51,303 bases of DNA from Deltaproteobacteria bacterium (GCA_016935665.1 JAFGQN010000209.1:1-51303); one strand, 5' to 3'; shown: positions 6,670 through 37,131, counted from the first letter of the stretch. Numbers and translations: made by a program. Notes: generated from the sequence alone by a model not told the origin.

Positions 6670-7041
6670 TTTTTGCTGACAAAAACGGTGCTGGTTAGGG
6701 TATTAAATCAAGTGTGAGGGCAATCTGGACGACGGCAAGGAAAAAGCACTGTTCCAGATGCGATTGCTTCGAAACGCTATTGCTCCCCGGAAGCTGCCCG
6801 TTTTCGATTTTGCCTGCGCGGCTGAAAGGCGATGTTTGGGAGTCCCCGTAAAGGTCCCCACTCGCCTCACATGAAAAGTTGTTTCCGTTGTTGATGAAGC
6901 GGGACTGGTAATAGTGTTCATTGCGTATGTGGGGCGAAGGTCACACCAGGGAGATACCTTCCACTGGGAGGGGCGTGGGGCGCCGCCGTCGCCGCCATGG
7001 ATGTGTATTGTGTCAAATACAGGTTCTCATAAAATCCATCC

Positions 7042-7066
7042 CATGTGTTTAAAACACGTGTACAAT
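7042..7066 (+). promoter_or_regulatory. Palindrome abutting a TACAAT -10 box
   Basis: CATGTGTTT and AAACACGTG flank a single A, complementary at 8 of 9 positions, and are directly followed by TACAAT at 7061-7066. This is a plausible operator overlapping the promoter of the lamin-tail lipoprotein gene at 7121. No good -35 box is visible, which would fit an activator-dependent promoter. Confidence 0.35.
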
Positions 7067-7120
7067 CGACGATGGTTGTATCGATGCTTAGCCCCTTTGG
7101 GATTAATATATGGAGGAACT

Positions 7121-10100
7121 ATGGATTCTGGCTTCCAGATATTCAAAGGAATTAAAAAATTAGTAATTACATTGTGTTATGTTGCTCTGTGCGGAATGGT
7201 ATTCATTCTGGGGTGTTCTCGCGACAAGGACGGCAATGGTGATGCCGGGGAATCGGACTCCGACGAACGCTCAACGGAATCCGCGTCAATGTTGGACAGC
7301 GATTCTGTATCCGATACCGAAAGCGAAACGTTTGCAAAGGTTGGGACGCTGGCGTTCAATGAGGTGATGAGCAAAAACGATGGTGTGGTGCTCGATGAAG
7401 CACTGGAAGCTGAAGACTGGATAGAACTCATTTGCACCGGGGACGAAGCCATCAATCTTTCGGATTACCAAATTGCCAAAGACGGTGGAACCCCCAACGC
7501 ATTGCCGGACTATAAGCTCAGTCCGGGGGAAACCGTCATTCTGTTTGCGGACAGGGAACCGACCCAGGGGCAGAGGCATTTAAACATCAAGATCAGCGCC
7601 GATGGAGAACAGCTGACATTGCTCAATGCCAACGAGGAAATCCTCGATACACTTGACGTGCCGCCCCTGGCTCCCAATGTGAGTTATGCCAGAATACCTG
7701 ATGGCGATGGGGATTTTGTCACATGTCGATATGCCACGCCGGATACGCCCAATGGCAGCGAATGCATTCCCCCTGCGCCCAAAGGTCTGGAAGAAGAATC
7801 ATTTGAAGAATACCAATGGCCCGATGATGCGCTGGCGCCGGAAGGACCGCTGGTGATTAATGAACTGTTGCTCAAGCCGGCAGCGTTCATCGAGATAGCC
7901 AATATTGGAAGCGAGGCTGTATCTCTTGAAGATTATTCTCTGACTATCTCCCCTCATTTTCCAGGGGTGCAATGGCCACAAGCGGGAGAGGGAACGGTTA
8001 TTTCTCTGGGGATGGGGGCGTTGCAGCGAGGGGAGTACCTGAGTGTGGCACTGGACAGTGCACATACCGAGGCACTGGCGGCGGATACTTTGTTTGAAGG
8101 GGTGGTCACTCTGTTTTATGCTTCAGAGGTGGCGGATCGGGTGGATTTCATGAGCTGGCCCGATGGCAGCGCATTGGCCCGGGAACCTGACGGCACCGGA
8201 TTATTCACGTATTGCCTCAACACCACACCGGATGCACCCAACAACTGTGAACAGACGGCCACTCGCGAAGTGGGTGATAGATTGCGCTATTTGAGAACCC
8301 CAACCGACTTTGACAAGCTGGCCGAAGGCGGCGCCAAACTGGGCATCGGCTCGGTGAAGTTTGTGGTGGATATGGACGCGGGCAACGCAGTGCATCTGCT
8401 TGGCGCGTGGGACTGGGACCTCCACTACACATTTGTGCGCGAAGTGATTGACGGCGATCCACCGCTGGATCGATGTGACGCATCGGAAAATGCACAGTTC
8501 AACCAGGGCTGGGGCACCTTTTCCTCTGAGAACTACTACACGGTGGAAGGCAGGCGTTACCTGCTGGGCACATTGTCTCACCACAGCAGTGCGGATTTGC
8601 GTTGCGTGGAGTACACCTTTGGCGACGAAATCAGTGCGCAGCAGATGAAGTTTGGGTATTACCAGGCGATTGCGCGAACCAATACACCCACGCAATGGGT
8701 GTTGAGACCGCAGGACGATATTCAGGTGGCGAAGGCCAGGAGCATTGAAGGACAGTTGCCCATTGTGGGCCCCACTGCGCCCTTTGCGAATGTGGTGTAT
8801 CAGACCCTCACCGAGGGCGTGGGCTATGGGACGCTGCGGTACATTCCCGCCACCGATTTGTCTGCTGCGGCGCTGGGCCCCAAAACCATTGTGGTGACCG
8901 ACGATGTGCCCAACGACATCCCCTATGTGGGGGGCCTCATCACCGAGGCGTTTCAGACGCCTCTGTCGCATGTGAATATTTTGAGTAAAAGTCGCAATAC
9001 GCCCAATATTGCCGTGAAAAACGCCCGCACGGACGAGCGTATTGCCCCGTTTATCGATGAACTGGTTAAACTCGAAGTGTTTCCCACCCATTTCGAAATA
9101 TCGATGGCAAATCCGGCAGAAGCCCAGACCCACTGGGAAAGTCTGGTTCCCGACGGCCCGATGCTGACACCGCTGCTGGATGACAGTGTGCGCGGCATTG
9201 TATCTCTGGGCAAGGATGTGGGCTTTGAACACCGGGGCAGCATCGGGGCCAAAGCTGCGCAACTGTCAGAGTTGACCCGCATTGCCTCGGGTTTTTCGCG
9301 CTGCGATACCGTTTTCCCACTGCCCACTCCCAAGGCGGCGTTTGCCATTCCGGTGGCTCATTATCTGGACCACTTTGAGAGCAGCGGCGCCAAAGCTGTT
9401 TTCGACGATGCAAAGCAGAATGCGGATTTTCAGAGCGATCCCGCCGTTCGTGCGGTGGAGCTGGCGCGCATGCGCGAATTGATTCTGTCCCATCCGGTGG
9501 ATGACGCATTGATGGCGGAGGTGGCGGGCGAAGTGGCCGACCGCTTTGGCAATGAACGCGTGCGGTTTCGCAGCAGTAGCAATACCGAGGATTTGCAGGA
9601 ATTCAACGGCGCCGGGTTGTACACGTCTCAAAGTGGCCAGCTCAATGATCCGGAGCGCTCCATCGATGACGCCATTCGGGTGGTGTGGGCCAGTTTGTGG
9701 AACGACCGCGCGTTTGATGAACGGCAATACGCCCGCATCGATCACAACGGCGTGGCCATGGGCATTCTGGTGCACGAGGCGTTTTTGTCGGAGGAAGCCA
9801 ATGGTGTGGCGGTGAGCCGCGACATTACTGATGTGACCCGGGGGGACAGATATTACGTGAATGCGCAGGCGGGGGAGGGGTCGGTGGCCAATCCTGCTCC
9901 GGGAGTGACCACTGAACAGGCCATTTATCAATGGCCGTCACGGTTGCCCACTCTGCGCATGATGGCCCAAAGCAGTTTGGTGCCCGACGCCGTGTTGTGG
10001 AACTCAAATACCCCGGATTCCAGTGAAATATATTTGCAGGGTGAGGTTTTGGGGGAGACCCGGGACGTGGTGCGCGCGCTTAGGGCCATTCACAATCATT

Positions 10101-10255
10101 TTGAAGCGCTGCTCGATCCCAACGATGAAGAACCGCTGTTTGCCATGGAAATTGAATTCAAGCTGGAACACGCCACGCGAAAACTGCTCATCAAACAGAC
10201 TCGGCCATACTCTTTTGGCGCTTTGCCTTTCCCTGCGGACTGCCGGGAGTTGTAG
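7121..10255 (+). CDS. Lipoprotein with two lamin-tail domains and a GWD/PEP-synthase-like dikinase unit
   Basis: A 1044-residue protein beginning at the ATG four bases after GGAGGA (upstream in-frame sequence has no signal peptide or ribosome site). The signal ends ILGC (Cys32), followed by an acidic Ser/Asp linker. Two lamin-tail domains follow at about 74-212 (WIELICTGDEAINLSDYQI) and 240-370. A phosphohistidine swivel-like segment follows, with His617 in TPLSHVNILSKSRN, and then a PEP/pyruvate-binding ATP-grasp-like domain at about 750-1030 (RFRSSSNTEDLQEFNGAGLY, VWASLWNDRAFDE, terminal LLIKQTRPY). The swivel-before-ATP-grasp order is that of glucan water dikinases, not of PEP synthase. 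The motifs look intact, yet the protein is predicted to be exported, where ATP is normally absent. Substrate unknown. Confidence 0.75.
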   Translation: MDSGFQIFKGIKKLVITLCYVALCGMVFILGCSRDKDGNGDAGESDSDERSTESASMLDSDSVSDTESETFAKVGTLAFNEVMSKNDGVVLDEALEAEDWIELICTGDEAINLSDYQIAKDGGTPNALPDYKLSPGETVILFADREPTQGQRHLNIKISADGEQLTLLNANEEILDTLDVPPLAPNVSYARIPDGDGDFVTCRYATPDTPNGSECIPPAPKGLEEESFEEYQWPDDALAPEGPLVINELLLKPAAFIEIANIGSEAVSLEDYSLTISPHFPGVQWPQAGEGTVISLGMGALQRGEYLSVALDSAHTEALAADTLFEGVVTLFYASEVADRVDFMSWPDGSALAREPDGTGLFTYCLNTTPDAPNNCEQTATREVGDRLRYLRTPTDFDKLAEGGAKLGIGSVKFVVDMDAGNAVHLLGAWDWDLHYTFVREVIDGDPPLDRCDASENAQFNQGWGTFSSENYYTVEGRRYLLGTLSHHSSADLRCVEYTFGDEISAQQMKFGYYQAIARTNTPTQWVLRPQDDIQVAKARSIEGQLPIVGPTAPFANVVYQTLTEGVGYGTLRYIPATDLSAAALGPKTIVVTDDVPNDIPYVGGLITEAFQTPLSHVNILSKSRNTPNIAVKNARTDERIAPFIDELVKLEVFPTHFEISMANPAEAQTHWESLVPDGPMLTPLLDDSVRGIVSLGKDVGFEHRGSIGAKAAQLSELTRIASGFSRCDTVFPLPTPKAAFAIPVAHYLDHFESSGAKAVFDDAKQNADFQSDPAVRAVELARMRELILSHPVDDALMAEVAGEVADRFGNERVRFRSSSNTEDLQEFNGAGLYTSQSGQLNDPERSIDDAIRVVWASLWNDRAFDERQYARIDHNGVAMGILVHEAFLSEEANGVAVSRDITDVTRGDRYYVNAQAGEGSVANPAPGVTTEQAIYQWPSRLPTLRMMAQSSLVPDAVLWNSNTPDSSEIYLQGEVLGETRDVVRALRAIHNHFEALLDPNDEEPLFAMEIEFKLEHATRKLLIKQTRPYSFGALPFPADCREL

Positions 10256-27007: not shown

Positions 27008-28591
27008 ATGACACCATCGAGACCAAAACCGATTGCAAAGGGCAATTTTGCCAATACGCCATTTGCACACATACTGGTGTACATCCGCAATAAGCGGTTG
27101 CACGGCACCCTCGAAGTGCACGAGGGGGGACAGGAAATTTCCATTTATTTTAGAGAAGGGGCGCCGACGCGGGTCGCCAGCACGGAACCGGGAAAGCGGT
27201 TGGGAGAGGTACTGGCCGAGATGGGTCGGATTACGCCGCAGCAACTCCAGGAGAGTCTGGACGAAGTGCGACGCACGGGAGAACTGCACGGGCAGGCGCT
27301 GGTGCGGATGGGCTTTGTGGATGGTTCTGGACTTGTGGCGGGAATCACCGAGCAGATGATTTCCAAAATGACCTCCGCATTCGGTTTCACCCACGGGGAG
27401 TATGCCTTTTATCAAGGCGTGGATTTGATTCCACAGGGCCCATCGGAAATTATCAATATGCATTCGTGGGCGTTGTTGATGGCTGGCATCCGTCAGTATG
27501 CGGCACAGATGAATTTGTCGCCCTACCTCGCTGCCCTCGACGATAAATCCTTTTTTTTGGCGGATCCGGAACTTCTAAAGGATTTCAGATTAAATGGGGA
27601 GGAGAGAATGCTTTGCCGCAGGCTGCTGGAGAGACCACAGGATTTGATCTCTTTGAAAAAGTGGGATGCGGTGGACAGACATGTGGTGCTGGGCACGCTT
27701 TATGTGCTGTTGATTACCAAGACACTCAAAGTAATTGCGCCTGAGGAAGTGGAAAGGACTGAATCAATAATGCCTAAAAGCACGTTGGACTCTGTGGCGC
27801 CCAGAGAACAGCAGACGTCCTTTCCGCCTGAAATCCAGGAAATGCGTGATAGAATCCAGACTCGGGCCGCGCAAATATCCTCGCAGAACTATTACGAGAT
27901 GTTGGATGTAACCAGAGACGCAACCGCTGCGGATGTCCGCAAGGCTTTTTTTAAGCTGGCGAAGCATTTCCATCCCGATCGGGCCGCCAAAGCGGGGCTG
28001 GAGGATTTGCGGGAAACATTGGCATATTTATTTGCAAATCTGTCTGAGGCGCAAAACACGCTGGTGGACGAGGATGCCCGGGAAAATTACGATGCGTATC
28101 TGATCAGCTCGGGGGGAGCTGGCGACGTCGGTGGCAAGACCGATGAAACCGATGAGGAGCGACAGGTGCGTCTTGTTATCGAAGCGGACCGATTATATCA
28201 GAAAGCCCATGTGCTGATGCGCCAGCAGAAAAATGCCGAGGCTTTGGAAATGATGGAGGAAGCCTGCACCAATTGCCCCGAAGAAGGTGAATATATCGCC
28301 ACGAGGGCGTACCTGAAAATACAACTCGGGATGGATGAGACCGGCTCGACGCTGAACGATTTTCGAATCGCGTTGCAAAAGAATCCCAAATCGGAGCGGT
28401 GCCATTTCTATTTTGCGCAGGCGCTGAAAAATAACGGCCGAATTAACGAAGCGAAACAGCATTTTAAAATGGCGGTTGAAATCAATCCCCGAAATATTGA
28501 AGCGGCCAGAGAGATTCGGCTTATTGAGATGCGCAGCCGAAATACCGGGAAAAATCGTAAACCGGGTCTGTTTGGTAAGTTCCGGAAGTGA
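27008..28591 (+). CDS. PATAN (DUF4388)-J-domain-TPR protein
   Basis: A 527-residue multi-domain protein. Residues 10-150 are a PATAN/DUF4388-like region (ANTPFAHILVYIRNKRLHGT, YFREGAPTRVASTEPGKRLG, PQQLQESLDEVR), found in signalling proteins of Myxococcota-type bacteria. Residues 295-365 are a J-domain with the Hsp70-activating His-Pro-Asp at 322-324. From about 395 to 515, TPR-like helices follow (AHVLMRQQKNAEALEMMEEA, CHFYFAQALKNNGRINEAKQ), then a basic tail. It may recruit an Hsp70, such as that at 47711, to a complex. Ribosome site AAAGGCG is weak and rather far from the ATG. Confidence 0.8.
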   Translation: MTPSRPKPIAKGNFANTPFAHILVYIRNKRLHGTLEVHEGGQEISIYFREGAPTRVASTEPGKRLGEVLAEMGRITPQQLQESLDEVRRTGELHGQALVRMGFVDGSGLVAGITEQMISKMTSAFGFTHGEYAFYQGVDLIPQGPSEIINMHSWALLMAGIRQYAAQMNLSPYLAALDDKSFFLADPELLKDFRLNGEERMLCRRLLERPQDLISLKKWDAVDRHVVLGTLYVLLITKTLKVIAPEEVERTESIMPKSTLDSVAPREQQTSFPPEIQEMRDRIQTRAAQISSQNYYEMLDVTRDATAADVRKAFFKLAKHFHPDRAAKAGLEDLRETLAYLFANLSEAQNTLVDEDARENYDAYLISSGGAGDVGGKTDETDEERQVRLVIEADRLYQKAHVLMRQQKNAEALEMMEEACTNCPEEGEYIATRAYLKIQLGMDETGSTLNDFRIALQKNPKSERCHFYFAQALKNNGRINEAKQHFKMAVEINPRNIEAAREIRLIEMRSRNTGKNRKPGLFGKFRK

Positions 28592-28771: not shown

Positions 28772-29767
28772 ATGAGTACTTTTTTTCTACAGCGGGGCAT
28801 ACGCCTGCCGGTTTCGATTCCGGCACATATCACTATTGGTCATATTGCGGATATGGCCGTTCAGACACCGCGGTCATCTTACTCGGATATTTCCAGCCGA
28901 CCGTCGGACCTGGTGCGAATGCGATTGCCATTGGCACAGCGGTTGAATCGCTTTGTTGCGGAAAGTGGCCGTCATGTGGTGCTGCGGCTGGCCGATGCGG
29001 ATCCCTTTTCAGAGGCACAGCGCGCAGAAACGCAACGTTTGCTGGGTGAAGCGTCTCTTGTGCAAAAAGCAGTGGCGCTTTTAAAAGAAAAATCGGGGGT
29101 ATCAAGGATATTTATAGCGGCTCACAAACGACAGCATATTGGTCCATTGGGTGAGCAGGGCGATGTGCTGCGCATCCATCATGCGCATTATCCGATGATG
29201 TCCGCTGCCTGTATCGCCCATAAAGTGCTGCCAGAGATACCGGTATTAACCAACGATCTGCTGGTTCGCGATTTGCTGGTGGTGGATGTGGGCGAATTGT
29301 GGTCACTGCTGGCGCCCTCGCGGCCATTCGTTGTGTCCGTCATTACCACAAAGGGTGCGACCAACATGCTGGTTCCGCCGGGAACCACGGTAAAACAGAT
29401 TCTGGAGGTGTTGCCGTCGTCCGTTGGCTCCGACCCCCATCAGGTCGTGTTGGGATCGCCTTTGCTGGGTGACATATGTGATGATATTGATTGTGTAGTG
29501 GACACCGATGCGCTCACACTGCTTTCGACCGAGGCACAGGGGTTCGAAAATCTGCCATGCTGCAACTGTGGCAAATGTGTAAAGGTCTGTCCAGCGCGAC
29601 TTTTGCCCGGGCTGCTTTCAAAGCATATCCATGCCGGCCAATACGGGGATGCGGGAAATTTGAGCGTGGCATCGTGCATTGAATGTGGCTGTTGCGCATA
29701 TGTGTGCCCGTCAAAGCGACCGCTGGTTCAGTATATGCGACGGGGAAAGGACGAGACTGCCAAATGA
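28772..29767 (+). CDS. rnfC: RnfC-like subunit, short and divergent
   Basis: A 331-residue RnfC homologue, first of seven overlapping genes. The C-terminus has two 4Fe-4S sites: CNCGKCVKVCPA (Cys264/266/269/273 region) and CIECGCCAYVCPSKRPLVQY (302-312), the latter the usual RnfC signature. The N-terminal two thirds align only loosely: the glycine-rich FMN/NADH loop (GxGGxGFPT), the ECEPY block and the NVGT block of normal RnfC are missing or read ADADPF and DVGELW. Normal RnfC is over 430 residues. It sits on the cytoplasmic side of the complex. I infer loss of NADH oxidation; electrons may enter elsewhere. Confidence 0.85.
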   Translation: MSTFFLQRGIRLPVSIPAHITIGHIADMAVQTPRSSYSDISSRPSDLVRMRLPLAQRLNRFVAESGRHVVLRLADADPFSEAQRAETQRLLGEASLVQKAVALLKEKSGVSRIFIAAHKRQHIGPLGEQGDVLRIHHAHYPMMSAACIAHKVLPEIPVLTNDLLVRDLLVVDVGELWSLLAPSRPFVVSVITTKGATNMLVPPGTTVKQILEVLPSSVGSDPHQVVLGSPLLGDICDDIDCVVDTDALTLLSTEAQGFENLPCCNCGKCVKVCPARLLPGLLSKHIHAGQYGDAGNLSVASCIECGCCAYVCPSKRPLVQYMRRGKDETAK

Positions 29768-30750
29768 AAAATCAGTTTTTCAGTTGGAATGGTATTCAGG
29801 GGGCGCCCCATTTTCACAGCGGTGTTACGATTCGCAAACTGATGTTTGGATTGGTGGTGGCCCTGCTGCCCCCATTGGGATTTGGCGTGTATCAGTACGG
29901 GATGGGGGCGCTGTTGCTTATTGGGGTCTCCGTGATATCGGCCGTATGCGTGGAGTTGCTGGTGGATGTGACAGCATACCGGCGTAAAACCAGGATTTTC
30001 AATTTTCATGCGGCGGTGGTGGGACTGCTGGTAGCGGCCATGTTGCCGCCGGGATGTCCCCTTGCCATCGCAATGGTGGGCGCGGGATTGGCCATTTTAT
30101 TGGGAAAGGCGCCGTTCGGGTCCCTGGGGGGCAGTTTTATCGCGCCCGCCATCCTGGGGATGCTGATTCTGTTTGTGTCCTGGCCCCAAAGCGCAAATCA
30201 GTGGCAATTTCCCCATGAGTCAGCGGACTACAACGGGAAATACGTCGCCGAATCGCCATTGCAGGCGGTGTATGCGGATCCGTCCGACGAATACGAGTAT
30301 TCTCCCATAAAAATGTTTCTGGGCGTAAATAATGTGGGACCAATCGGTGCCGGCAGCGGACTGGCTCTGTTGGTGGGGGCGCTGTGGCTTGTGTTCATGC
30401 GCATTACCCGCATGTATGCCACATTGGGGTATATGACTGGAGTGGTTATTGCCGCGGGGATTCTTGGGGCGATGTACCCGGAGGAACCCTCTGTCTGGTT
30501 TCATCTGGCCAGCGGTTATGCATTATTCGCGGCGGTGTTTCTGGTCAATGACATTCCAGCCAGTCCGGTGACAGAGCCGGGGATGGTGCTGTTTGGATTG
30601 TTGTCGGGCGCGCTGACTATTGTTCTGCGCTTTGCGGGCGTGGAGCTGGGGGCGGCGCTGTTTGCGGTGGCCTTCTCCAGTATGGCAGTACCTTTTTTTG
30701 ACAAACTTCAGGCGAAACCCGCGTTTAAAAGCGAGGTGCCCCATGCGTGA
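29764..30750 (+). CDS. rnfD: RnfD membrane subunit
   Basis: A 328-residue membrane protein with about eight to ten helices (for example MLPPGCPLAIAMVGAGLAILLGK, GSFIAPAILGMLILF). Normal RnfD carries FMN on a Thr in an S-x-A-T-P-L loop between helices; here the equivalent position reads VAESPL (residues 161-166), so the acceptor Thr is Ser164 and the rest of the motif is lost. It forms the transmembrane electron path with RnfE, RnfA and RnfG. Start ATG overlaps the rnfC TGA; the open frame extends upstream without signal. Confidence 0.9.
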   Translation: MKNQFFSWNGIQGAPHFHSGVTIRKLMFGLVVALLPPLGFGVYQYGMGALLLIGVSVISAVCVELLVDVTAYRRKTRIFNFHAAVVGLLVAAMLPPGCPLAIAMVGAGLAILLGKAPFGSLGGSFIAPAILGMLILFVSWPQSANQWQFPHESADYNGKYVAESPLQAVYADPSDEYEYSPIKMFLGVNNVGPIGAGSGLALLVGALWLVFMRITRMYATLGYMTGVVIAAGILGAMYPEEPSVWFHLASGYALFAAVFLVNDIPASPVTEPGMVLFGLLSGALTIVLRFAGVELGAALFAVAFSSMAVPFFDKLQAKPAFKSEVPHA

Positions 30751-31348
30751 CAAACTCTGGTACATGGTTTTGGTGCTGGGTTGCGTGGCGGCCGTTTTTG
30801 GTGGCGCCCTGGCGTTTGTCAATGCGCATACCCGCGACGTTATAGAAGAACGAACGTTTAGAGAAACGGTGTTGCCCACACTTGAAAATGTATTTGCGCC
30901 ATATAGGCCCACCAATGATTTCTTAAAGGATAAAAAATCTGAACGGGTGGGCGAGGACGCCATGGGCCGTCAAATTCGCGCGGATATTTACGTGGCCCAA
31001 AAAAATAAAATGCCGTTGGCCATGGCCACCATTCTGGACGGCCGAGGTTATGGCGGAATCATAAGAGTGATGGTGGCTGTGGATGTGAACAAAAAAGAGA
31101 TAATCGCCACCCGAACGCTACAGCAAACGGAAACCAGGGGCCTTGGGGATCAGATTGCCAATCCAGAGGAGCCTTTCGTAAAGCAGTTCAATGGGATGCG
31201 AATGGAAGCCAATCTGAAACTGACGTCCGAGGGTGGGCAGGTGGATGGGATGTCCGGCGCCACGGTGACCAGCACTGCCTACGCCAAAACGGTAAAAGCA
31301 GCCTGTCATTTGCTCTTGAATCAGATTTCGCAAAAGGGGGCGCCATGA
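30743..31348 (+). CDS. rnfG: RnfG flavoprotein subunit
   Basis: A 201-residue subunit with one N-terminal membrane anchor (8-28) and a periplasmic FMN-binding domain. The covalent flavin site is intact: DGMSGATVTSTAY, with Thr174 as the acceptor. ETRGLGDQI is the usual preceding block. It passes electrons on the periplasmic side and is the likely partner of the cytochrome at the end of the operon. It overlaps rnfD by eight bases, with GAGGTG as ribosome site. Confidence 0.92.
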   Translation: MRDKLWYMVLVLGCVAAVFGGALAFVNAHTRDVIEERTFRETVLPTLENVFAPYRPTNDFLKDKKSERVGEDAMGRQIRADIYVAQKNKMPLAMATILDGRGYGGIIRVMVAVDVNKKEIIATRTLQQTETRGLGDQIANPEEPFVKQFNGMRMEANLKLTSEGGQVDGMSGATVTSTAYAKTVKAACHLLLNQISQKGAP

Positions 31349-31974
31349 AACCCCTGTGGCAGGAATTCACCAAAGGGTTCAACGCGCAATTGCCGCCATT
31401 CAGACTGGTGTTGGGGTTGTGTCCCGCGCTGGCGGTGACCACCACTGTGGAAGGTGGGCTGGGAATGGGAATTGCCACACTCCTTGTGCTGTTGATGTCC
31501 AATCTGGTCATTTCACTCTTGCGCAATATCATTCCCAACTCTGTCCGTATAGCGGCCAACATTTCGGTCATCGCCGGTTTTGTGGTGATTGTGGAGTTGA
31601 TGATGAAGGCGTATACACCGACGCTGTTCAATATTTTGGGCGTGTTTATCTCGCTCATCGTGGTCAACTGCATTGTGCTGGGGCGTGCGGAGGCGTTTGC
31701 CAAAAAGAATGGCCCCGTGCGTTCGATGGTGGACGCGTTGGGCATTGGCAGCGGATTCACGGTGTCGCTGGTGATTCTGGGGCTGGTTCGAGAAGTGCTT
31801 GGCAGAGGCAGCATCACTCTTTTTTCAGAGGCCAATGTGAAATTCCAATTGCTGCCCCAAACGGACGGATACGTGTTTCGATTGGCAGTGGAGCCCGCGG
31901 GAGCGTTTATTTTTCTGGGGGTTATCCTGTTTGTGATTAATCTTCGGTCCAAAAAGGAGAAGGTGGCCCAATGA
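31345..31974 (+). CDS. rnfE: RnfE membrane subunit
   Basis: A 209-residue integral protein of about six helices, paralogous to RnfA. FTKGFNAQLPPFRLVLGLCP-type start and the conserved VNCIVLGRAEAFA (with the membrane Cys of the buried iron-sulfur site) match the family. With RnfA it forms the intramembrane iron-sulfur centre and ion path. ATGA overlaps with rnfG upstream and rnfA downstream show one transcript. Confidence 0.93.
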   Translation: MKPLWQEFTKGFNAQLPPFRLVLGLCPALAVTTTVEGGLGMGIATLLVLLMSNLVISLLRNIIPNSVRIAANISVIAGFVVIVELMMKAYTPTLFNILGVFISLIVVNCIVLGRAEAFAKKNGPVRSMVDALGIGSGFTVSLVILGLVREVLGRGSITLFSEANVKFQLLPQTDGYVFRLAVEPAGAFIFLGVILFVINLRSKKEKVAQ

Positions 31975-32546
31975 TGGAATACATTCTTCTTTTTATCGCA
32001 GCGGTATTTGTCAATAATATCGTACTATCTCAGTTTTTGGGGATTTGTCCCTTTGTGGGGGTGTCGGGCAAAGTGAGTACTGCGGCGGGCATGTCCATGG
32101 CCGTTCTGTTTGTCACCACCATTTCCTCCATGCTGACCTGGGTGGTGGTGAAGCATGTGCTTATTCCACTTGAAATAGAGTATTTGCAGACAGCCGTATT
32201 TATTTTAATCATCGCCACGCTGGTGCAGTTTGTGGAACTGTTCGTTCAAAAAGTATCGCCATCTCTGTTTCGAACTCTGGGGATTTATTTACCGTTGATT
32301 ACCACCAACTGTGCGGTGCTGGGAGTGGCCATCATGAATATTCGCAATGAGTACGATTTTATTCATACGGTGGTGCACGCATTTTCAACGGCGGTGGGAT
32401 TTGGACTGGCCATGGTCATTTTTGCGGGAATCCGCGAGCGACAGGCCCTTTGTGATATTCCAGGGCCTTTGCAGGGCACGGCGCTGGCGCTCATTACCGC
32501 GGGTATTCTGGCGCTGACGTTCACTGCGTTTCAGGAGGTGATGTGA
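31971..32546 (+). CDS. rnfA: RnfA membrane subunit
   Basis: A 191-residue protein of about six helices. FVNNIVLSQFLGICPFVGVS at 12-31 and ITTNCAVLGVAI (membrane Cys) are the RnfA signatures. It pairs with RnfE to coordinate the iron-sulfur cluster in the membrane that couples electron transfer to sodium or proton movement. Its gene lies between rnfE and rnfB with 4-base and 1-base overlaps. Confidence 0.94.
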   Translation: MMEYILLFIAAVFVNNIVLSQFLGICPFVGVSGKVSTAAGMSMAVLFVTTISSMLTWVVVKHVLIPLEIEYLQTAVFILIIATLVQFVELFVQKVSPSLFRTLGIYLPLITTNCAVLGVAIMNIRNEYDFIHTVVHAFSTAVGFGLAMVIFAGIRERQALCDIPGPLQGTALALITAGILALTFTAFQEVM

Positions 32547-33133
32547 TGGGGTTGTCCATTGCGCTCGCAGCGGGGGTCATGGGCGCGCTGGGGGTTATTT
32601 GTGCGATATGTCTGGGCATTGCCGGTCGGTTTCTGGCTGTGGCGCGAGATACGCGGGTGGATGAGCTGGCCCAGTTGTTTGGCGGCACAAACTGTGGCGC
32701 CTGTGGGTATGCCAGTTGCGTTGCGGCTGCCTGGGCGCTGGTGAAAGGCGAGGTTGAAGTCGATGTGTGTGTCCTTGGCGGAGGAGAGGTGGCTGCAAAG
32801 GCTGCAGTAATAACCGGTGTGTCCGCTAACGACGAACCACTGATTTCCGAGGAACTGGACGGCACGGATGTGTTGGCGCCAACGGCACCCAAAAAACGCA
32901 AACGGGAGTTGCCACTCCCCGTCGAGTTGAAGCCCGGAGAGTATCCGGTCATTGATACCGAAAACTGCATTGCCTGTGGTCTGTGCGTTCGGGTATGTCC
33001 CTCTGGCGCCATCGTTGGTGAACCCAAAACGATACCGGTATTGAATCTTGACGATTGTACGTACTGTGGCGCCTGCATTCCCTCCTGTCGCAAGGGATTT
33101 ATTCTGGTGGAAAACGGGGAGGATGCAAAATGA
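32546..33133 (+). CDS. rnfB: RnfB iron-sulfur subunit
   Basis: A 195-residue protein: an N-terminal membrane helix, a 4Fe-4S domain with Cys50/53/58/75 (FGGTNCGACGYASC), and a two-cluster ferredoxin domain with Cys141/144/147/151 and Cys171/174/177/181. All cluster ligands are present. RnfB is the cytoplasmic entry for ferredoxin electrons. The ATG at 32546 lies seven bases after AGGAGG, better than the GTG one codon earlier. Short like the enterobacterial RsxB. Confidence 0.94.
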   Translation: MGLSIALAAGVMGALGVICAICLGIAGRFLAVARDTRVDELAQLFGGTNCGACGYASCVAAAWALVKGEVEVDVCVLGGGEVAAKAAVITGVSANDEPLISEELDGTDVLAPTAPKKRKRELPLPVELKPGEYPVIDTENCIACGLCVRVCPSGAIVGEPKTIPVLNLDDCTYCGACIPSCRKGFILVENGEDAK

Positions 33134-33954
33134 GTCGTGAAAAGATGACGATCAACCGCGGTGGTTTTTGGATACCCTTATTGGGAAGCATCTGTTGTCT
33201 GCTGCTGGTCTCCTGTGGAAAACCGGAGTTAAAGGTGGAAAAGGAAAAGGTGTCGTTTCCGTATAAGCGTATCGCAAAGGGAGACGACAATCCCGGCGAC
33301 TATGGCCCCGATGACGAAACCGTGCTCAATGCCATCGATGGCAAGTATCCCCCTGTGCCGTTCAGCCATTTCACTCATTCGTCCAACGCCGACGATGGCT
33401 ATGGCATTGATTGCCTGGTATGTCATCACGATGCGCAGACAGCCGATGACGCCACCACCTGCACCGAGTGTCACGAGCCGGGAGACGGTGCCGACGAGGC
33501 GTTGCTGGGACCGGATGACAACCTGCGCCTCGAAATGAAACCGCAAACCATTACGTCCACACCGTTTTCCCATTACACCCACGCGTCGTTTCAGGAAACG
33601 GGATACAGGATTGGGTGCCATCGCTGTCACCATGTGGCGGGCGATTATTCACCTTGTGGCACCTGTCATAAAGAACTGGCGCTGCCCGGTGATGACGGTT
33701 TGACCATTCCCAAACTGAAGCGGGCGTTTCACATGCAGTGCCGCGATTGTCATATTCTGTCTAAAAACAAAAAAGCGCCCATTACCTGTGAGGGGTGTCA
33801 TCGGCCCATGAAATATATTAAATCCGAGGACGTATTGCCTCTCTCCCGCTCCTATCACGTGATGTGCATCAACTGCCACCAGCAGGTAAACGACAGCGCA
33901 GGCAAACACGCACCAGTTAAATGCATCGGGTGCCATGTGCCCCCCACCAAATAG
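33130..33954 (+). CDS. Octahaem c-type cytochrome lipoprotein, rnf-linked
   Basis: A 274-residue protein with a lipoprotein signal ending LLVSC (Cys29). Eight CxxCH haem-binding motifs follow: CLVCH, CTECH, CHRCH, CGTCH, CRDCH, CEGCH, CINCH and CIGCH. Surrounding His residues suggest bis-His, class III type haems. It is the seventh gene of the rnf operon, with its ATG overlapping the rnfB stop and GGGAGG seven bases before it. I infer that it exchanges electrons with RnfG on the periplasmic side. A related arrangement is known in Methanosarcina, where a multihaem cytochrome lies beside rnf. Confidence 0.92.
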   Translation: MSREKMTINRGGFWIPLLGSICCLLLVSCGKPELKVEKEKVSFPYKRIAKGDDNPGDYGPDDETVLNAIDGKYPPVPFSHFTHSSNADDGYGIDCLVCHHDAQTADDATTCTECHEPGDGADEALLGPDDNLRLEMKPQTITSTPFSHYTHASFQETGYRIGCHRCHHVAGDYSPCGTCHKELALPGDDGLTIPKLKRAFHMQCRDCHILSKNKKAPITCEGCHRPMKYIKSEDVLPLSRSYHVMCINCHQQVNDSAGKHAPVKCIGCHVPPTK

Positions 33955-34020: not shown

Positions 34021-34068
34021 GTACGGGATCTTTAACAAAAGCGTTTCGGAAATCGAAGGAGTGTGCTC

Positions 34069-34686
34069 ATGAGAAAATTTGTTATTTCAGTCTGCGTTTT
34101 GTTGAGTGGTTTGGCCATGGCCAAAGCCAGTTACGCCGAACTGCCCGCCGGCAAGTTTCGTCTGCACATGTCGCAAACGTTTGTGGAGGTGGCGACCGGC
34201 GAAGTGAATCCGGATGGCCTGGACAATAGAGAATACGGCGGTCTGGAAATTGGCGTCGGTATGGATCGCATGGGATTTGGTTTTGGGTTTGCACTGGGCG
34301 GAAAACTGCTGCTGGGCGCCAAAGTCAGCCTTGGTCAGGAATCGGGCGATTGGCATCCGGGAAGTGAAGAGGACCATTTTCAGATTTCCGGCATCCCATA
34401 CCTGGAATTCGTTTTCCTCACCACACGCATTCGACCGTTTGCCAAGGTGATGCTGGGCATTGAAGGGGCGCGTTGGGAAGACGGTGGCGGATTTTGGGGA
34501 CTGGTGATGGGTGGTGGCGGTGGTCTGCACTTTTTTCTCGCTCCCAGCGTTTCCATCGATGCAGATTTGGAGCTGGGATTCCGATTTGGTACCGGACACT
34601 GGGACGAGTCCCCGGCGCCAGATCGGGACTTCAGTCACTGGCGCTTCAGCTTTGCCACGTTGGTAGGACTATCGGCATGGTTATGA
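34069..34686 (+). CDS. Secreted outer-membrane beta-barrel-like protein
   Basis: A 205-residue protein with a classical signal peptide cleaved near AKASYA (about residue 23); AAGGAG lies seven bases before the ATG. The mature part has alternating hydrophobic strands with aromatic and glycine residues (GFGFALGGKLLLGAKVSLGQ, PFAKVMLGIEGARW) and ends with aromatic-rich strands. It resembles an eight-stranded barrel or lipid A-type OMP, but no specific family is recognised. The last 41 bases overlap the 3-prime end of the hydrolase gene on the other strand. Confidence 0.6.
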   Translation: MRKFVISVCVLLSGLAMAKASYAELPAGKFRLHMSQTFVEVATGEVNPDGLDNREYGGLEIGVGMDRMGFGFGFALGGKLLLGAKVSLGQESGDWHPGSEEDHFQISGIPYLEFVFLTTRIRPFAKVMLGIEGARWEDGGGFWGLVMGGGGGLHFFLAPSVSIDADLELGFRFGTGHWDESPAPDRDFSHWRFSFATLVGLSAWL

Positions 34687-35581: not shown

Positions 35582-36406
35582 ATGGACGTGTTGCAAAAAA
35601 CCGGACAGGCCGGTATCGGATTTGTAAAGTATCTGTTAACGCTGGTGGCCCTTTTTTATTTGTCCATTAAAGTGATTTGGACCAACCGCGATTTGGGCAA
35701 GCGTGAGCTGTTTCGTCAGATATTTTTGCAAATTTATTTCACAGGTGTTCAGGCCATTATCCCGGTATCGGTGGTGGCTCTGGCCGTGGGAACGTTTGCA
35801 ATCGTTAGCGGCATTGGCGGCGCCGGATTTCTGATGACCGGGTCTTCCAATATTGGGCGAATTGTGACCGTGGTGGTCATTCGCGAGATTGCGCCGCTAC
35901 TGACGGGCGGCATTGTGATTGTGCGCTCGGCCACCGCCATTGCGGCGGAGTTGGGCAGTATGCGGGTACAGCGTGAAATCGAGGCGCTGGAGGCGATGGG
36001 GATTTCGCCCGTATTGCAGCTGTTGACCCCGCGCATCTTTGGCGGTCTCATTTCTTTTGCAGGACTCAATGTGATATTCGATGCTGTGGCCCTGGTGTGT
36101 GGATTCGCCATTTCCCAGACAATGGTGTCCATACCCGCAGACGTGTTTTTTAAATCGGTATTTTCGGCGGTGACGCCTATTCATCTGGTGGGGTTGCTCA
36201 TCAAGGTGCTGGTGGGAGGCATTGGGATTTTCCTTATCGCCTGCTACCATGGCATGGCAGTGGGGCGTTCCTCGACGGAGGTGCCGGTGGCCGTGTCCAG
36301 AGCATCATTGAATGCGTTGGTGTTTCTGCTTTCCGTTGATTTGGCCGTGTCGTTTACGTTACTGCTGTATCATGATGCCAATAAATACCTGGGAGGCATG
36401 TTTTGA
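35582..36406 (+). CDS. mlaE: MlaE-type ABC permease
   Basis: A 274-residue integral protein of the MlaE/YrbE family with about five to six helices. IPVSVVALAVGTFAIVSG, REIAPLLTGGIVIVRSATAI and ELGSMRVQREIEALEAMGI are the family blocks; the last is the coupling helix that contacts the ATPase. It moves phospholipids or other hydrophobic molecules between the membranes, together with MlaF and MlaD. It overlaps the next gene by four bases. Confidence 0.92.
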   Translation: MDVLQKTGQAGIGFVKYLLTLVALFYLSIKVIWTNRDLGKRELFRQIFLQIYFTGVQAIIPVSVVALAVGTFAIVSGIGGAGFLMTGSSNIGRIVTVVVIREIAPLLTGGIVIVRSATAIAAELGSMRVQREIEALEAMGISPVLQLLTPRIFGGLISFAGLNVIFDAVALVCGFAISQTMVSIPADVFFKSVFSAVTPIHLVGLLIKVLVGGIGIFLIACYHGMAVGRSSTEVPVAVSRASLNALVFLLSVDLAVSFTLLLYHDANKYLGGMF

Positions 36407-37131
36407 CCACCGCGCTTCCTGTATTGCGATTGACCGATGGCATACGGTTTTTTTTCAGTCAGATTGAGTACAGTGTTGAGCGGTTGCGCTGTGACACCGG
36501 TCAGTGGGTGGCCTTTGTGCCCGCAGACGCGGATCCGGTGACGGATCCGTCGGGCACGTTGGCCAGAACGCTCATGACGTTGAGTCCCCCGGCGCAGGGA
36601 ACGGTGGAAATTTTTGGGATTGAAGGCTATAGCATTCCGTATCGGGATGTACAGCGGTTGCGATCGCGAATCGGGTTTGTCCAGGGCTTTGGGGGATTGC
36701 TTTCAAACCGAACCATTCGTGAGAACGTGGCATTGCCGGCAGCGGTGCACGGACGGTTTACAGTCGAAGAGGAGCGCCGCATGGTGGACGAACGCCTCCG
36801 AGAGTTTAAACTGCGTACCGTTCAGGATTTGTCTCCCCATCTGGTGGATGGATATACCCGCTGGCGGGCCTGCCTTGCCCGGGCGTTGATTCTCAATCCG
36901 GGATATGTGGTTCTGGAGGGCATTGGAGACTGGGAAATGGACTCTGGTCGCGGTGTGGCCTGGACCGGGATTCGGGCCTATCATGATCGGGGCGATAATC
37001 TTATTTGCATCTGCGCATCCCGTCGAAATCAGGGGTTCGAAACGTGGTTTCAGGAAAACGGTGGTATACTGGTCGAATACGTTGACCGAACAAACCGCAG
37101 ACAAACCCTGCCGGGAAATGATTCGTTTTAA
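36403..37131 (+). CDS. Degenerate ABC ATPase (MlaF-like pseudo-ATPase)
   Basis: A 242-residue protein in the place of MlaF. It aligns along the ABC fold and keeps the Q-loop block IGFVQGFGGLLSNRTIRENV (Gln94) and ARALILNP. The Walker A loop is gone: ADADPVTDPSGTLAR stands in its place. The signature LSGGQ reads LVDGYTR, Walker B plus catalytic Glu reads VVLEGIGD, and the switch His region reads CASRR. It probably cannot hydrolyse ATP. Start is TTG, six bases after GGGAGG and overlapping the mlaE stop. The gene is intact, with no stop or frameshift, so it is under selection as a protein. Confidence 0.75.
   Translation: MTTALPVLRLTDGIRFFFSQIEYSVERLRCDTGQWVAFVPADADPVTDPSGTLARTLMTLSPPAQGTVEIFGIEGYSIPYRDVQRLRSRIGFVQGFGGLLSNRTIRENVALPAAVHGRFTVEEERRMVDERLREFKLRTVQDLSPHLVDGYTRWRACLARALILNPGYVVLEGIGDWEMDSGRGVAWTGIRAYHDRGDNLICICASRRNQGFETWFQENGGILVEYVDRTNRRQTLPGNDSF

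What the first reader, a model, noticed from the sequence alone, without database searches (positions are those of the whole stretch)
28772..33954. Rnf operon ending in an eight-haem cytochrome lipoprotein
Seven genes, rnfC-D-G-E-A-B and a cytochrome, overlap by 1-8 bases, so the cytochrome is a fixed part of the unit. RnfB, RnfG and all eight CxxCH sites look intact. Known Rnf complexes couple ferredoxin oxidation to NAD reduction; the cytochrome-linked form is best known from Methanosarcina. A bacterial version with a membrane-anchored octahaem protein would connect ferredoxin to a periplasmic or extracellular acceptor.
Basis: partly seen in the sequence, partly recalled or inferred. Interest (0 to 1): 0.75.

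Follow-up and report, generated by a model that had tools for sequence, protein, structure and literature searches.

The report
Rnf pump rewired to a cytochrome
A bacterial membrane pump that normally passes electrons from ferredoxin to NAD has here lost its NAD-handling parts and carries instead its own eight-haem cytochrome outside the membrane, so it probably sends the electrons outward; the same change marks a large group of related pumps in sulfate reducers and their kin.

Summary
The operon is real: rnfC-D-G-E-A-B and a lipobox-bearing, eight-CxxCH class III cytochrome overlap by 4-8 bases (28772-33954). RnfC is only 331 aa: it lacks the barrel domain and the FMN/NADH motifs but keeps both [4Fe-4S] clusters. 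RnfD lacks the covalent-FMN motif. RnfB has no NAD(P)H domain. Only the RnfG FMN remains as a recognisable flavin site. The anatomy therefore favours ferredoxin -> RnfB -> RnfA/E -> RnfG -> periplasmic cytochrome (inferred, not shown).

The window lies in one strongly supported Rnf clade in which RnfC and RnfD have lost these motifs together. Multihaem cytochromes abut 34 of 53 such loci and 0 of 73 canonical ones. In the window's own family the cytochrome always follows rnfB (8 operons).

Much is known in outline: cytochrome-linked Rnf in Desulfovibrio and Methanosarcina, and a 'Tol2-type' Rnf with altered RnfC and RnfB. New here are the 3'-terminal octahaem lipoprotein, the smallest RnfC, loss of RnfB's NAD domain within one genus, and the clade-wide coupled loss of RnfC and RnfD flavin sites, which makes the question of what these complexes reduce testable. 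Verdict: new variant of a known kind.

The parts
28772..29767 (+). rnfC, 331 aa: short form without RnfC_N barrel and without FMN/NADH motifs; NuoF-like remnant, SLBB-like region and two [4Fe-4S] motifs (CxxCxxCxxxCP twice) intact
   Evidence: (TIGR01945 only at residues 185-328); AF2 model and Foldseek to RnfC 8ahx/9eri/7zc6
29764..30750 (+). rnfD, 328 aa from ATG 29764; the [ST]xATPL covalent-FMN motif is replaced by AESPL
30743..31348 (+). rnfG, 201 aa, covalent FMN site SGATVT intact
   Evidence: (best NCBIfam hit RnfG_DVU2794, 121.8 bits, below its cut-off of 205)
31345..31974 (+). rnfE, 209 aa, both membrane Cys motifs (GLCP, VNCIVLG) present
31971..32546 (+). rnfA, 191 aa, both membrane Cys motifs (GICP, TNCAVLG) present
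32543..33133 (+). rnfB, 196 aa: FeS domain plus a 2[4Fe-4S] domain; no GltD-like NAD(P)H/FAD domain, which congeneric G002 has (692 aa)
33130..33954 (+). octahaem class III cytochrome c lipoprotein, 274 aa, lipobox LVSC, 8 CxxCH, 8 invariant distal His

Best explanation
This is a derived Rnf complex that no longer handles NAD(H). Ferredoxin (or a like donor) reduces RnfB in the cytoplasm; the electron crosses the membrane through the RnfA/E [2Fe-2S] centre to the covalent FMN of RnfG on the periplasmic side. Instead of returning through RnfD flavins to RnfC and NAD+, it leaves to the membrane-anchored octahaem cytochrome and from there to other periplasmic cytochromes. Ion pumping would still be driven at the RnfB-RnfA/E-RnfG step. 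Shown here: operon, motif losses, retained clusters, clade-wide covariation, cytochrome linkage. Inferred: electron path, direction (ferredoxin to cytochrome under normal conditions; reversal possible), pumping and final acceptor. RnfC probably stays as a cytoplasmic cap and FeS relay beside RnfB.
For: RnfC: no Complex1_51K and no RnfC_N match; GGxxFP and NxxECEP loops absent, eight cluster Cys invariant. RnfD: SGATPL motif lost. RnfG SGAT kept. The same losses occur in all 44 rnfCDGEAB-order operons of an independent Desulfobacterota sample, while 4 ABCDGE-order operons there are intact; such loci form one clade of 54 rows, SH-aLRT 100, one change. Adjacent multihaem cytochrome: 34/53 such loci against 0/73 canonical. 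The cytochrome follows rnfB in all 8 family genomes that have it. Eight invariant non-motif His fit bis-His ligation of eight haems. The genome has seven POR gamma matches (ferredoxin donors), ApbE, cytochrome c assembly proteins and no haem-copper oxidase. NAD work can be done by a separate canonical Rnf in the same genome. The canonical path RnfG-FMN -> RnfD-FMN -> riboflavin -> RnfC -> NAD+ is from PMC12174285. M. acetivorans Rnf, which does not use NAD, gives the precedent RnfG -> cytochrome c (PMC4023990).
Against: In D. alaskensis, rnf genes matter for growth but dhcA mutants show almost no phenotype (PMC4215793), and M. acetivorans mmcA is dispensable on acetate (PMC6703419), so operon cytochromes need not carry the main flux. 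RnfC keeps both clusters perfectly, so it still seems to move electrons at the cytoplasmic side, which a pure RnfG exit does not need. RnfD may bind FMN non-covalently or keep riboflavin; sequence cannot tell. Many clade members have no adjacent cytochrome (19/53). Loci in one clade are not independent, so the 34/53 against 0/73 contrast is not a per-event statistic. No RnfG-cytochrome contact was shown.
Confidence: 0.6

Rival explanations
1. Reverse use: the cytochrome brings electrons from periplasmic donors and the ion gradient drives them inward through RnfG and RnfA/E to make reduced ferredoxin.
For: Rnf complexes are reversible (PMC12174285); the Desulfovibrio decahaem cytochrome has been proposed to feed Rnf (PMC4841214). 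Same parts list, so all structural evidence fits.
Against: Seven POR gamma matches in the genome suggest that reduced ferredoxin is already supplied; a canonical Rnf is present for reverse transport.
Confidence: 0.2
2. RnfC's retained FeS clusters hand electrons to an unknown cytoplasmic acceptor (not NAD), as proposed for Tol2-type Rnf; the cytochrome is an accessory.
For: All eight RnfC cluster Cys invariant in 49 clade members; PMC5109826 calls for an unidentified RnfC partner; 19/53 loci have no adjacent cytochrome; dhcA mutants are almost silent (PMC4215793).
Against: RnfD, the canonical bridge from RnfG to RnfC, has lost its covalent-FMN motif in the same loci, so the path to RnfC looks cut. 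The cytochrome is strictly retained in the window's family.
Confidence: 0.13
3. The window operon is decaying: RnfB lost a large domain, RnfC shrank and the branch is longer than that of G002.
For: Window end branch 0.38 against 0.20 for G002; RnfB 44% and RnfC 49% identity to G002 while RnfE/A are 77-78%.
Against: All seven frames are open and overlapping, all cluster Cys, SGAT in RnfG and eight CxxCH with eight invariant His are kept. The short RnfC is shared with G002, whose RnfB is full length, and RnfB ends in an intact 2[4Fe-4S] domain rather than a broken frame.
Confidence: 0.05

Closest known systems
Canonical Rnf (ferredoxin:NAD+ oxidoreductase; A. woodii 9eri, A. vinelandii 8ahx, C. 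tetanomorphum 7zc6)
   Same: Six subunits, RnfA/E Cys motifs, RnfG SGAT, RnfC 2[4Fe-4S], fold of RnfC
   Different: No RnfC FMN/NADH motifs, no RnfC_N barrel, no RnfD covalent-FMN motif; a cytochrome gene is part of the unit
D. toluolica Tol2-type Rnf (PMC5109826)
   Same: rnfCDGEAB order, RnfC without NADH-oxidoreductase domain, clade of loci with these traits; congeneric G002 has the ~700 aa RnfB
   Different: Window RnfB is 196 aa without NAD-binding domain; RnfC shorter still; octahaem lipoprotein at the 3' end
Desulfovibrio dhcA-rnfCDGEABF
   Same: Multihaem cytochrome in the operon; nearest NCBIfam RnfG model is RnfG_DVU2794; probable kin L207-L209 have a 10-haem gene upstream and RnfB without GltD
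   Different: Cytochrome first in the operon, decahaem, different sequence; here last, octahaem and lipobox-bearing
Methanosarcina acetivorans MmcA-Rnf (PMC4023990, PMC6703419)
   Same: NAD-independent Rnf with multihaem cytochrome; model RnfG -> cytochrome c
   Different: Archaeal, mmcA first in the operon; sequence kinship of MmcA to the window cytochrome was not tested
HmcA / TmcA class III cytochromes of sulfate reducers
   Same: Cytochrome sequence matches HmcA (1h29, E 1.7e-12) and TmcA
   Different: 8 haems against 16 or 4; far below the NCBIfam cut-offs; partner is Rnf, not Hmc/Tmc

Membership tests
Canonical ferredoxin:NAD+ Rnf | Six subunits RnfA-E,G encoded together | tested here: met
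Canonical ferredoxin:NAD+ Rnf | RnfC with FMN/NADH site (Complex1_51K; GGxxFP, NxxECEP) | tested here: not met
   18/18 canonical RnfC match PF01512
Canonical ferredoxin:NAD+ Rnf | RnfD covalent FMN (SGATPL) | tested here: not met
Canonical ferredoxin:NAD+ Rnf | RnfG covalent FMN (SGATxT/S) | tested here: met
Canonical ferredoxin:NAD+ Rnf | Two [4Fe-4S] clusters in RnfC | tested here: met
Canonical ferredoxin:NAD+ Rnf | Reduces NAD+ with ferredoxin | not testable with these tools
   needs membranes
Tol2-type / DVU2794-type Rnf clade | Groups with these Rnf in a tree of RnfD+E+A+G | tested here: met
   (SH-aLRT 100); the Tol2 and D. vulgaris proteins themselves were not in the tree
Tol2-type / DVU2794-type Rnf clade | RnfC without NADH site | tested here: met
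Tol2-type / DVU2794-type Rnf clade | RnfB ~700 aa with NAD-binding domain | tested here: not met
   196 aa; present in G002; not found as a split gene
Tol2-type / DVU2794-type Rnf clade | RnfG over the NF045876 cut-off (205 bits) | tested here: not met
   121.8 bits, best family hit
MmcA-linked Rnf of Methanosarcina | Multihaem cytochrome in the rnf operon | tested here: met
MmcA-linked Rnf of Methanosarcina | mmcA first, rnfCDGEAB after it | tested here: not met
   cytochrome last
MmcA-linked Rnf of Methanosarcina | Ferredoxin-dependent cytochrome reduction | not testable with these tools
   needs membranes
Class III cytochrome c | PF02085 over its cut-off | tested here: met
   72.6 bits against 22.9

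The most novel reading that the evidence does not exclude
The whole clade (Tol2-type, probably including Desulfovibrio Rnf) is a third class of the Rnf/Nqr family: ferredoxin:cytochrome c (or other non-NAD) oxidoreductases in which RnfC and RnfD lost their flavin sites together, so that any ion pumping must work without a covalent RnfD flavin. The window lineage is its most reduced form.
Probability: 0.4. Interest if true: 0.82.

Novelty: new variant of a known kind. Interest (0 to 1): 0.62.

Why it matters
Rnf complexes of sulfate reducers and their relatives are usually written as ferredoxin:NAD+ pumps, and a search of the 2025 Rnf/Nqr review (PMC12174285) finds no mention of any Desulfo- genus. 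If the NAD site and the RnfD covalent flavin are truly gone, energy budgets for these anaerobes change. The clade would also be a natural test of whether Rnf/Nqr ion pumping needs RnfD flavins or only the RnfA/E iron-sulfur switch.

Tried and rejected
First genome-contig scan with the window RnfC alone found nothing. A split-off GltD module in the own genome: only paralogues of at most 41% identity. AlphaFold2 of the cytochrome with four sequences was unusable (pLDDT 37), so no RnfG-cytochrome interface could be judged. The RnfC model (pLDDT 74, residues 1-50 unreliable) only confirms kinship to RnfC. Weak Complex1_51K matches persist in 38/49 clade RnfC: the fold is often kept and the motifs are lost; in the window's family even the profile match is gone. 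One paper search term was malformed, one alignment was mistyped and not used, and Pereira et al. 2011 is not held. The 5'/3' labels are unreliable on the minus strand; searches give the positions. The regular expression for RnfD was wrong and was replaced by the alignment.

Full report
OBSERVATION. The region holds seven + strand genes with 4-8 base overlaps: rnfC, D, G, E, A, B and a cytochrome. Pfam and NCBIfam identify them. The cytochrome (274 aa) has a lipobox (LVSC), eight CxxCH motifs and matches class III cytochromes (PF02085; HmcA 1h29, E 1.7e-12). Besides the eight motif His it has ten more, of which H80, 83, 100, 148, 151, 168, 201 and 243 are invariant among relatives: exactly one distal ligand per haem if all are bis-His (inference).

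RnfC is 331 aa instead of about 440. Pfam finds neither RnfC_N nor Complex1_51K, only the 4Fe-4S domains; TIGR01945 covers only residues 185-328. In alignment the FMN loop (GMGGATFPT in the canonical copy of the same genome) and the NGAECEPY loop are absent, while all eight cluster Cys stay. RnfD carries AESPL where canonical RnfD has [ST]xATPL, the covalent-FMN site. RnfG keeps SGATVT. RnfB has 196 aa with a 2[4Fe-4S] end.

THE FAMILY. In the same taxonomic family the same order rnfCDGEAB-cytochrome recurs (G003, G004, G007, G012, G013). There the cytochrome has 11-12 CxxCH, RnfC is 435-476 aa but still without a 51K match in the three members scanned, and RnfB is about 690 aa, fused to a GltD/NfnL-like Fer4_20 + Pyr_redox_2 domain. 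Congeneric G002 has the short RnfC (49% identity), the fused 692 aa RnfB and the octahaem cytochrome (59%), with identical flanks; its operon is split over two contigs. So the short RnfC arose in the genus, and the NAD(P)H domain of RnfB was lost only in the window's lineage; no split-off copy was found. Named relatives place the family among genomes labelled Myxococcota or Deltaproteobacteria (L058, L059). A search of 318 genomes of the class with the cytochrome found full-length homologues in eight genomes, all of this family and all next to rnfB or its GltD end.

THE CLADE. A second genome scan and motif tables gave further loci with the same coupled loss in RnfC and RnfD: Desulfarculus, Dethiosulfatarculus, Desulfacinum and others. 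As an independent sample, 297 genomes of the phylum of Desulfacinum were searched with RnfG_DVU2794 and 48 neighbourhoods read. All 44 rnfCDGEAB-order operons lack the RnfC loops (43 with RnfC on the contig) and the RnfD motif; the four ABCDGE-order operons keep both. A tree of RnfD+E+A+G puts all such loci in one clade (54 rows, SH-aLRT 100, one change of state). RnfC is not in that tree; the RnfD FMN-site columns are at most a handful of its 914 columns. Multihaem cytochromes lie against the cluster in 34 of 53 clade loci and 0 of 73 canonical ones; since this is one clade, the Fisher value (2e-17) should not be read as independent events. RnfB with the GltD domain was seen in 28 clade loci; a basal group and the decahaem group L207-L209 have RnfB of 270-333 aa without it. 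The latter match the Desulfovibrio vulgaris set in size and order (DhcA 27.8 kDa, RnfC 43.5, RnfB 30.9; PMC10920352); that Desulfovibrio Rnf belongs here is inferred, since the named proteins could not be fetched.

MECHANISM. In known structures electrons run RnfB -> [2Fe-2S] of RnfA/E -> FMN of RnfG -> FMN and riboflavin of RnfD -> RnfC clusters -> FMN -> NAD+ (PMC12174285, PMC9588780). Here the recognisable flavin motifs after RnfG are missing and a periplasmic cytochrome is added, so an exit at RnfG is the simplest reading; this is the model proposed for the NAD-independent M. acetivorans complex (PMC4023990). The own genome is ferredoxin-rich (seven POR gamma matches), has ApbE and cytochrome c assembly proteins, no haem-copper oxidase, and separate canonical Rnf and Nqr operons. 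The only other class III match is in a protein with at least 24 CxxCH on C180, a possible next carrier (speculation). Direction, pumping and acceptor are inferred.

PRIOR ART. Cytochrome-linked Rnf is known in Desulfovibrio (PMC4841214, PMC4287179) and Methanosarcina (PMC4023990). A Tol2-type Rnf with ~700 aa RnfB and RnfC lacking the NADH domain is described with an unknown partner (PMC5109826). D. vulgaris Rnf has been called a ferredoxin:cyt c3 or ferredoxin:NAD+ oxidoreductase (PMC10920352). PMC11434368 reports 'loss of rnfB' with an FAD-dependent oxidoreductase instead, which is probably the RnfB-GltD fusion (inference). I found no held paper reporting the coupled loss of the RnfD covalent-FMN motif, the clade-wide pattern, or the 3' octahaem lipoprotein variant; the library lacks most subscription journals.

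CAUTIONS. The D. alaskensis dhcA mutant is almost silent (PMC4215793), MmcA is dispensable on acetate (PMC6703419), and RnfC keeps its clusters; the cytochrome may be one exit among several. Non-covalent flavin in RnfD cannot be excluded by sequence. Weak 51K matches in 38 of 49 clade RnfC show that the fold, unlike the motifs, often persists.

Noticed in passing
window 36403-37131: MlaF-like ABC protein beside mlaE with degenerate ATPase motifs (Walker A place reads FVPADADPVTDPSGT, signature place DGYTRWRACLARAL); weak ABC_tran match. The same degenerate form is conserved in G002 (L147 7665-8453).
   Followed up: partly
window 27008-28591: DUF4388-DnaJ-TPR protein directly upstream of rnfC; kept in the same place in G001, G002 and G004.
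   Followed up: partly
window 6914-10255: 1113 aa ORF joining a Lamin Tail Domain with a PPDK_N ATP-binding domain.
   Followed up: no
window 34063-34686: Predicted secreted protein of 207 aa without Pfam match directly after the cytochrome, conserved in G002 (53%).
   Followed up: no
L051-L053: A second flavin-less Rnf in sister genomes G003, G012, G013: 8-haem cytochrome upstream of rnfC and RnfB fused to a GltD-like domain, RnfG of L051 over the RnfG_DVU2794 cut-off.
   Followed up: partly
L055 and L057: The window's genome also encodes a canonical Rnf (C167) and an Nqr (C210): three related pumps in one bacterium.
   Followed up: partly
L165 / L167 (G000:C180): Frame of about 1100 aa with at least 24 CxxCH motifs in the part read; the only other class III cytochrome match in the genome.
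   Followed up: no
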